A stretch of 64,000 nt of DNA from Serendipita indica DSM 11827 (taxonomy: Eukaryota > Basidiomycota > Agaricomycetes > Sebacinales > Serendipitaceae): the NCBI GenBank assembly GCA_910890315.1, contig CAJVGD010000006.1, positions 1,426,001 through 1,490,000 on the forward strand. The letters are read 5' to 3'. The notes beneath the pieces are model-generated. The model made no database searches, had not been told where the DNA came from, and worked only from the letters and a program-made list of their open reading frames with translations. The translations under genes were made by a program, and so were the position numbers. Positions 14,455 through 16,755 of the stretch are shown here, one piece after another. How positions within the stretch are numbered: position 1 is the first letter of the stretch; every line of letters starts with the position of its first letter.

Positions 14455-16755
14455 TTACTATAGAGCCACATAGGAATCACAAGGGCATCATCAGTCACTC
14501 ACTCAATTACACCACCAGGTTCACGCACCAAAAAGTAGTCAGGAACGCGACGAGAGACCATGGGCTCTCCGGCGCGTGGAGCAGGGTCGAATTGTAGGCT
14601 GTATGGATGCGATATTACAGTGGCAGAAACGTGATGTTGTTTTTGATCAGCCCGACATTACCGGACGGTGTGGCCAATGTTCAAGTGTGTCATTGATGGC
14701 GCGGAGGAGCGGCGACACCAGTGTTGTCCCAGATCCGTATGGGGAACAAGGCGCAATCAACATCAGAACCGCGAAATGGAGATTGAGCGTTGTGAGAGGG
14801 CGTTGAAGCAGACGTCCCGATCCGTCAGGTGTTGTTTTTGGCAACAGCACGATCATTTGCACCCGCATCGAGAACGAAAAGTTCGGACGAGCGGAATTTG
14901 CAATGAATAGTCATCGGATATCGCGATGCCATCATGACGCGGTTTCGGGATTAGGGTTTGAAGCCACAGGGTCCGGTGTTCGATGTGTGCGAAGCCATGA
15001 GTCGAAGAAAACGTAAGTTCCGAAAGACAAGTGTGTCAGTAAACGTGTTTGCGAACAGGGTAAGCGCAAAAAGGACGAAAGGGCTAGCCCGGAACTGTAC
15101 CGGGCTCTTTGCAGGGCCGGTCAGTCCGCCCAGAACCAGTCAGCGCACTGTACGCAGGGCGGGGGCGTATGGCGCACGCCACGGAGGCGGGGTTACTGAT
15201 CGACACCCCGACCAAGCTGCCCACCCGACAAGGCACTGCAAACAGACATGCAGTGCATATGCACGCTCAACAATGTAGGCGCGAGAGAGCTTCCGGTCGT
15301 CGGGGTTGGTGTCGACTCGTTCGATGCCGGGTCGGAGGACAACGCACACCGAGAAGAAGCGACGCGAAACGTCAACGGTACTCGGAGGCAGCGAGGATGG
15401 TAGATATAAGATAAGTGGGATAAAGTGACACGTACAAACTATAAGATAACTTCTCGTCGATTTCCATGATAGCCGCTTGGTTACCGCAGCGATAGCAGTA
15501 GTTGGGCGCGCTGAATATGGTGACAACGTTGCGGTCTTGACTCCAATTGTATCCTGTCCAATGCGATCAGTCTCTCCGATTTCCATTTCTGGATCTGGCT
15601 ACTCACCTTCCATGACCAACTGATGCGCCCGCGCTACAAGCGTGAGGCCGTTATTGTGATTGAATGCCTCAGAGATATCTTGCCCAAAGGTGTATCCTGC
15701 GCCACGAGGAGAGATACCCCAGCCACTGGAGGGTATGAGCACCCTACCAACCTGGATGTAGAGAATCCGCGTACCATCGGTCATCAGGGTCTGACCATAG
15801 GAGGTCACACATTGGACCCTCGTGAGGCACTTCTTGGACACGGTCGATGGATCGAACGTGGTCAAGAGTGTCGATTGATGGCGATAGACCGCCGTGAAGG
15901 CAGAAGATCTATGGAGCGTCAGACGAGGGACTAACGGTATGAAATAACAGATTTGGTACATACTTGGTTGTCAATAAGGGCGGTCAATGGCAGAAAGTCG
16001 AAAAGATCGGTAAAGAACCTCCAGACGTTGGCGTTGCCGTATTTTCGAAGACACTCGTCGTAGAAGCCGTATACCTGACAATCAAAGCATGTAAACCACA
16101 TGTCACTACTGAAGTAACCGCGATAGCGCCGAGGAGGTACATCGCCCTCTAGAGACATTGTATGCCCTGGATACAGAACGAATGCGTCTGAGAATGAAAA
16201 TGAAGGCTTACTTGTGTGATTTGACGGCTCTCGTGATTGCCTCGGAGGATAGTAACTCGCTCGCGATACCTCAGCTTGAGCGCGACGAGGAGTGTGACAG
16301 TCTCGACGGAATAGTACCCTCTGTCAACGTAATCGCCCATGAAGAGGTAGTTTGTGTCGGGAGAATTGCCACCGATGCGGAATAGCTCGCTCAGATCGTG
16401 CTGTTGTGCCATCGCGCGTCCAACGATTAGCCCATCGCCGACTGGAGAATGAAGAGAGAAAGATACACATACAAATTGACCGTGTATATCACCGCACACG
16501 GTTACTGGGCACCGTACGGGCTGTACGTTGTTCTCCTCCATGAGGATCTCTCGCGTCTATGTCCGCGTCGCATCCACGGCCGATCAGGAAACGCATGGGT
16601 GTGTATAGGAAGTTATGGTCATTAGCACACGTCGTACAATATGTTCTAGACGGAGAACGGACCTTGTCGCAGAGCTTCTTGACGTCCGACTCTGTCAGTT
16701 GCTTGCATTGGGATAGCTGGCTGATCCATCCATCGACTTCGTTGTAGTCTGTCAT
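14455..16755 (-). CDS. Serine/threonine protein phosphatase 2A catalytic subunit
   Basis: Catalytic subunit of PP2A, acting with scaffold and B subunits in the cytosol and nucleus. The spliced protein begins [20 protein letters not shown] and shows the metal and catalytic motifs GDIHGQFHDL, GDYVDRG and RGNHESR. It also has [14 protein letters not shown], the PP2A-type [19 protein letters not shown] and [12 protein letters not shown]. The last coding piece after [13 protein letters not shown] ends VPDYFL. Introns include an unusually long one (14599-15435, 837 nt) before that piece and a 71-nt one (14458-14528) that puts the stop codon TAA (14455-14457) alone in the last exon, giving the canonical DYFL terminus. 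Without that last splice the frame would add nine residues (VREPGGVIE) and stop. Start chosen by the conserved N-terminus. Confidence 0.93.

What the first reader, a model, noticed from the sequence alone, without database searches (positions are those of the whole stretch)
14455..14598. PP2A stop codon isolated by a terminal intron; retention would mask the methylated C-terminus
The PP2A catalytic subunit must end in DYFL, whose last Leu is carboxyl-methylated to control holoenzyme assembly. Here the codon for Leu is followed directly by a donor GTGCGT, a CTGAT-like branch site and a CTATAG acceptor (14458-14528), then TAA. Splicing yields the canonical end. Retention would add VREPGGVIE and block methylation. 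This could be a switch on PP2A assembly through intron retention.
Basis: partly seen in the sequence, partly recalled or inferred. Interest (0 to 1): 0.72.

Follow-up and report, generated by a model that had tools for sequence, protein, structure and literature searches.

The report
Fungal PP2A intron before stop codon
In this fungus-like genome the gene for the phosphatase PP2A has a small, well-formed intron lying exactly between its last amino-acid codon and its stop codon; the intron looks ordinary and probably is simply spliced out, and nothing available here shows that it works as a switch.

Summary
On the minus strand the only clear PP2A catalytic-subunit gene ends in DYFL at 14529. 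A 71-nt GTGCGT...TATAG intron follows (14528-14458), then TAA (14457-14455). Retention would add VREPGGVIE. The intron is credible: against 94 introns mapped in conserved genes of the same genome, its donor, branch site and acceptor lie at the 63rd, 68th and 73rd percentiles, and the sum at the 78th. None of 127,560 scanned positions reaches its rounded scores and abuts a stop. An LCMT1-like gene, for methylating the terminal Leu, is present.

The 'switch' is not supported. The splice signals are better than average. Introns are so dense (42 confident phase-0 introns in 5,629 codons) that some genes should carry one before the stop by chance; a histone H4 and an actin copy have one in the third-last codon. 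One oddity: a 33-nt branch-to-acceptor distance, beyond all 86 controls with a recognisable branch site (maximum 31). The gene's weak intron is another: intron 7, 837 nt, branch site in the 2nd percentile. There was no expression data and no related fungal genome. Best reading: an ordinary intron, removed constitutively.

The parts
16663..16755 (-). PP2A-C exon 1 (start codon ATG 16755-16753)
   Evidence: protein match
16473..16556 (-). PP2A-C exon 2
   Evidence: spliced alignment; the acceptor of intron 1 (16557) is the least certain junction (my judgement)
16212..16400 (-). PP2A-C exon 3
   Evidence: spliced alignment
15964..16074 (-). PP2A-C exon 4
   Evidence: spliced alignment
15775..15908 (-). 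PP2A-C exon 5
   Evidence: spliced alignment
15607..15725 (-). PP2A-C exon 6
   Evidence: spliced alignment
15436..15553 (-). PP2A-C exon 7
   Evidence: spliced alignment
14599..15435 (-). intron 7, 837 nt, the outlier in length and the weakest branch site of the gene
   Evidence: no second copy found in the genome
14529..14598 (-). exon 8, 70 nt: the whole C-terminal tail (F)[23 protein letters not shown]
14458..14528 (-). terminal phase-0 intron, 71 nt, GTGCGT...CTATAG, between the last Leu codon and the stop codon
14490..14495 (-). branch-site match ACTGAT, branch A at 14491, 33 nt from the 3' end of the intron, no AG in between
14497..14502 (-). internal GTGAGT, a possible alternative donor (45-nt intron) that would leave only poor branch sites
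14499..14501 (-). TGA used if the intron is retained (tail VREPGGVIE)
14455..14457 (-). TAA stop codon of the spliced mRNA

Best explanation
This is an ordinary short spliceosomal intron that happens to lie in phase 0 between the last sense codon and the stop codon of the only clear PP2A catalytic-subunit gene. It is normally removed, joining Leu to TAA and giving the canonical DYFL end that LCMT1 can methylate. Any retained transcript would make a nine-residue-longer protein that cannot be methylated at Leu, but at a background level without a regulatory role. Shown here: the sequence anatomy, the gene model, the strength of the splice signals against the genome's own introns, and the presence of an LCMT1-like gene. 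Inferred: that splicing occurs, that it is constitutive, and that the extended form could not be methylated.
For: The protein matches human PP2A-C to its last residue, and YFL is stated to be identical from yeast to human in PMC8630191 (passages). Without splicing the end would be VREPGGVIE. Donor 63rd, branch 68th, acceptor 73rd and combined 78th percentile of 94 introns of the same genome, 6 of them from this gene. GC is 0.479 against a mean of 0.484; 13 of 94 controls are as long or longer. The first AG after the branch site is the acceptor. 42 confident phase-0 introns fall in 5,629 aligned codons of 21 mapped genes, about 0.75% per boundary. One H4 copy (L039) and one actin copy (L044) have introns in the third-last codon, and the last introns of the PP4-like and PP6-like genes lie 16 and 10 residues from the end; three of these four introns were among the 30 dropped by the flank filter, and the fourth was found only. 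LCMT1-like gene.
Against: The branch A to 3' end distance, 33 nt, exceeds that of all 86 of 94 controls with a recognisable branch site in their last 45 nt (maximum 31), which could slow the second step. 0 of 10 control genes whose end was read had an intron exactly at the stop. No transcript, protein or related-species evidence could be obtained, so constitutive splicing is not shown.
Confidence: 0.85

Rival explanations
1. Regulated intron retention at the terminal intron is a switch: retention hides Leu behind VREPGGVIE, prevents methylation, and shifts PP2A away from methylation-dependent B subunits.
For: The retained reading frame closes after nine codons with no further intron downstream in the model, so the message need not be destroyed (introns in the 3' UTR were not sought). 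The long branch-acceptor spacing. An LCMT1-like gene is present. Intron retention is common and condition-regulated in Cryptococcus neoformans (PMC5006051, abstract and passages). In human cells loss of the terminal Leu or its methylation reduces B55, B56 and B72 binding (PMC8630191, passages).
Against: Splice signals are stronger than in most mapped introns of the genome (78th percentile combined). No expression data. The same Cryptococcus paper argues that retention rarely diversifies proteins there: only 7% of retention events could give an alternative protein.
Confidence: 0.05
2. There is no intron; the protein really ends [13 protein letters not shown] and cannot be methylated.
For: The frame is open through the nine codons. 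The YFL end is not absolute in this genome: the PP6-like copy reads PYFV.
Against: YFL is stated to be identical from yeast to human in PP2A, PP4 and PP6 (PMC8630191). The PP4-like copy here ends YFL-TGA and neither it nor the PP6-like copy has an extension. An LCMT1-like gene is present. No other of 127,560 positions has an intron of this strength abutting a stop.
Confidence: 0.03
3. The control point is intron 7 and the 70-nt exon 8, not the terminal intron: retention of intron 7 or skipping of exon 8 would remove the whole methylatable tail.
For: Intron 7 is 837 nt, the longest of 96 confident introns; its best branch site is in the 2nd percentile, donor 34th and acceptor 29th. Exon 8 holds just the tail. 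Predicted products...[26 protein letters not shown] on retention...[29 protein letters not shown] on skipping.
Against: No expression data. Retention of intron 7 would leave a stop far upstream of another intron and so may only destroy the message (general knowledge of nonsense-mediated decay). The length may be an insertion without function; no second copy was found in the genome and no Rfam family matched above its gathering score.
Confidence: 0.05
4. Alternative donor use: the internal GTGAGT (14502) gives a 45-nt intron and a 37-residue tail after DYFL.
For: GTGAGT is, with GTACGT, the commonest donor hexamer here (11 of 96 each) and 45 nt is a typical length; the tail is.
Against: Donor in the 30th percentile, and the best branch site left scores in the 2nd percentile.
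Confidence: 0.02

Closest known systems
PP2A catalytic subunit (PPP2CA/Pph21 type) with LCMT1/Ppm1 carboxyl methylation
   Same: Full-length match to human PP2A-C, same DYFL end, LCMT1-like gene in the genome.
   Different: The stop codon is separated from the last codon by an intron; whether relatives share this could not be tested.
Fungal peroxisomal isoforms made by alternative splicing: U. maydis GAPDH (C-terminally extended) and A. nidulans PGK (Freitag et al. 2012, not read; seen only as described in passages of PMC3798809)
   Same: A splicing choice in a fungal housekeeping gene that, for GAPDH, changes the C-terminus.
   Different: There the isoform is reported as expressed and peroxisomal; here the possible extension ends VREPGGVIE and nothing shows that it is made.
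S. cerevisiae PTC7 intron retention (PMC6506691, passages)
   Same: A fungal phosphatase gene whose intron can be spliced or kept to give two proteins.
   Different: PP2C family, intron near the N-terminus without a consensus branch site, retention reported and carbon-source dependent.

Membership tests
PP2A catalytic subunit | full-length catalytic domain with GDIHG, GDYVDRG, GNHE motifs (motif names recalled) | tested here: met
   phmmer E 3.1e-188 to 2ie4_C, Pfam Metallophos 6.2e-45; motifs visible
PP2A catalytic subunit | C-terminal DYFL with a free terminal Leu | tested here: inconclusive
   DYFL present; free only if the terminal intron is spliced, which was not observed
U2-type spliceosomal intron of this genome | donor, branch and acceptor like those of mapped introns | tested here: met
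   63rd, 68th, 73rd percentiles of 94
U2-type spliceosomal intron of this genome | branch-to-acceptor spacing within the usual range | tested here: not met
   33 nt against a maximum of 31 in 86 controls with a branch site; a small excess, not a bar to splicing
U2-type spliceosomal intron of this genome | spliced transcripts exist | not testable with these tools
   no RNA data
regulated intron-retention switch | both isoforms made, ratio changes with condition | not testable with these tools
   no RNA data
exitron (retained intron without a premature stop; from the abstract of PMC10985678 listed) | no in-frame stop when retained; length a multiple of three (second part recalled) | tested here: not met
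   71 nt, TGA after nine codons
cryptic peroxisomal C-terminal isoform | extension ends in a PTS1 such as SKL (recalled) | tested here: not met
   possible tails end VIE, VLVL or EYR

The most novel reading that the evidence does not exclude
The methylatable tail of PP2A is a splicing-controlled module in this fungus: a 70-nt exon carrying only the tail, flanked by an unusually long weak intron 7 and by a terminal intron with an over-long branch-to-acceptor gap. The cell could thus make methylatable, tail-masked (VREPGGVIE) and tail-less PP2A from one gene and tie holoenzyme choice to splicing.
Probability: 0.05. Interest if true: 0.7.

Novelty: new member of a known kind. Interest (0 to 1): 0.2.

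Why it matters
If ordinary, it is mainly an annotation trap: a gene finder could miss a last exon that begins with the stop codon and report PP2A with a false VREPGGVIE end. If retention were regulated, splicing would be a second way, besides LCMT1 and its esterase, to set the pool of methylatable PP2A; methylation of PP2A by Ppm1 depends on SAM concentration in yeast (PMC6506691, passages).

Tried and rejected
Relatives: 184 residues of the PP2A protein (of 306) were searched in viral contigs (2 pattern matches, no relative) and genome contigs (one locus, L023, labelled Verrucomicrobiaceae MAG, 52% identity, residues 1-164 of the 184, so not the tail; not followed up).

Long intron 7 as a repeat or an RNA host: its only match in the genome is itself (the tool skips simple repeats and common words). 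Rfam at gathering scores in the whole window: one tRNA at 58402-58483 and nothing else. At E up to 5 over 13800-17600: two microRNA-family matches, both far under their gathering scores and outside intron 7.

Alternative donor and acceptors: GTGAGT has no good branch site and GTAATT is a weak donor (9th percentile); after 14458 the next AG acceptors within the 260 nt scanned are 189-258 nt from the donor.

PME-1: searched with a sequence recalled from memory; two weak matches (E 3.7e-5, 8.8e-5) that look like other alpha/beta hydrolases (my reading). Presence of PME-1 is open.

Folding of the branch-acceptor stretch: -3.4 kcal/mol for 35 nt, no shuffle control, not informative.

Papers: 9 searches ran, most with capped lists. 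I saw no listed title or abstract start about an intron between the last codon and the stop codon of PP2A; one search returned 0 papers. This is not proof of absence. Six papers were opened, each only as found passages: PMC5006051, PMC9707111, PMC3192844, PMC3798809, PMC6506691 and PMC8630191.

Species: genome size 24.7 Mb and the window's GC of 49-53% resemble Piriformospora (Serendipita) indica, 24.98 Mb and 50.68% (PMC3192844 passages). A lead only; nothing was tested.

Intron set: 126 introns mapped; 30 dropped by a filter (at least 4 similar residues among 8 on each side, 35-1500 nt), and 2 more (458 and 837 nt) for length over 260, leaving 94. One dropped, doubtful intron (L027, 996 nt) is longer than intron 7. 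Donor and acceptor percentiles are leave-one-out; branch and combined percentiles are not. The aligner rewards consensus-like donors and acceptors, so the controls probably lean towards strong sites.

Full report
What is there. The window lies at G000:C6:1426001-1490000 of a 24.7 Mb, 55-contig genome. Its minus strand carries a PP2A catalytic-subunit gene from ATG 16755 to TAA 14457-14455. Spliced alignment of human PP2A-C (302 residues taken from the PDB alignment) places seven introns inside the coding sequence (106, 72, 137, 55, 49, 53 and 837 nt) and reaches the last residue, Leu, at 14529. The aligned coding sequence is 306 codons. A genome-wide search with the protein finds no second copy of comparable identity: the pieces of this gene match at 79-96%, every other listed place at 70% or less (the tool scores only its best candidates).

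The terminal intron. Directly after TTG (Leu) comes GTGCGT; 71 nt later CTATAG is followed by TAA.

Is it a real intron? I built splice-site models from the genome itself. Spliced alignments of 21 genes (PPP phosphatases, actins and actin-related genes, H4, Ran, Cdc42-like) gave 126 introns. 96 passed a filter of at least 4 similar residues among the 8 on each side, and 94 of those were no longer than 260 nt and were used for scoring; 6 of the 94 come from this gene. The candidate scored 7.59 for the donor (63rd percentile), 5.46 for the acceptor (73rd), 7.35 for the branch site ACTGAT (68th), and 20.39 combined (78th). GTGCGT is the donor of 4 of the 96 confident introns. Length 71 nt is on the long side (13 of 94 as long or longer) and GC is average. 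The branch A lies 33 nt from the end of the intron; the 86 controls with a branch score above 3, sought in the last 45 nt, range from 7 to 31. With the candidate's rounded scores as thresholds, none of 127,560 positions scanned on both strands begins such an intron that abuts a stop codon (the rounding leaves the candidate itself out); at 25th-percentile thresholds there are 4 including this one. Together with the statement that the YFL end is identical from yeast to human (PMC8630191, passages), I regard the intron as real, although splicing itself was not observed.

Is the place special? Not much. In the 21 mapped genes, 42 confident phase-0 introns fall among 5,629 aligned codons, about 0.75% per boundary, so a genome with roughly ten thousand genes (an assumed number) would hold dozens of stop-adjacent introns by chance. 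Introns crowd the 3' ends: an H4 copy (L039) and an actin copy (L044) are interrupted in the third-last codon. The PP4-like gene (L024, ends PPEYFL-TGA) has its last intron 16 residues from the end, the PP6-like gene (L029, ends PYFV-TGA) 10 residues from the end. The first three of these introns were among the 30 that failed the flank filter, in which too few matched residues lie on one side; the PP6 one was found by hand. Exactly at the stop: 0 of 10 control genes whose ends I could read (L024, L029, L037, L038, L039, L040, L041, L042, L044, L045); the other 10 control loci (L025-L028, L030-L033, L046, L047) had ends that the alignment did not settle and are not counted. The names PP4 and PP6 for these loci rest on my recall of the families.

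What would retention do? The genome encodes an LCMT1-like gene (Pfam LCM above cut-off; PDB match to LCMT1, E 2.8e-12), so the free terminal Leu very likely matters here as elsewhere. In human cells deletion of that Leu, or reduction of LCMT1, reduces B55, B56 and B72 binding (PMC8630191, passages; see also PMC9707111, passages). A nine-residue tail would remove the target; that is inference. Because the retained reading frame stops inside the intron and the model has no later intron, the message need not be degraded; that too is inference. Intron retention is widespread and condition-dependent in Cryptococcus neoformans, but only 7% of events there could give an alternative protein (PMC5006051, abstract and passages).

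Which intron would be the better suspect? Intron 7. At 837 nt it is the longest of the 96 confident introns, its best branch site is in the 2nd percentile, donor 34th, acceptor 29th. It precedes a 70-nt exon that holds only the tail. It has no second copy in the genome and no Rfam match above gathering score. Skipping exon 8 or keeping intron 7 would remove the tail altogether. I found no evidence that this happens.

Verdict. The regulatory reading is untested and the sequence gives it little support; the terminal intron's signals are above average. It is most likely an ordinary intron, removed constitutively. The decisive test is simple: junction and retention read counts in RNA-seq.

Noticed in passing
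window 14599-15435 (-): Intron 7 of the PP2A gene is 837 nt in a genome where 80 of 96 confident introns are 42-65 nt; no second copy in the genome, no Rfam match above gathering score, weak branch site.
   Followed up: partly
window 46862-46918 (+), 6801 (+), 6810 (-): Three other places in the window where an intron-like stretch with signals at or above the 25th percentile abuts a stop codon; not tied to genes, possibly chance.
   Followed up: no
window 10746-12725 (-): A 660-residue open frame, rich in Gln runs, lies downstream on the same strand; no Pfam match at E 0.001.
   Followed up: partly
L029 (PP6-like), end: The PP6-like protein appears to end PYFV rather than YFL, so its last residue would not be Leu.
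   Followed up: no
L023, 4001-4598: A contig labelled Verrucomicrobiaceae MAG encodes a PP2A-like protein at 52% identity; bacterial gene or a eukaryotic contaminant, not examined.
   Followed up: no
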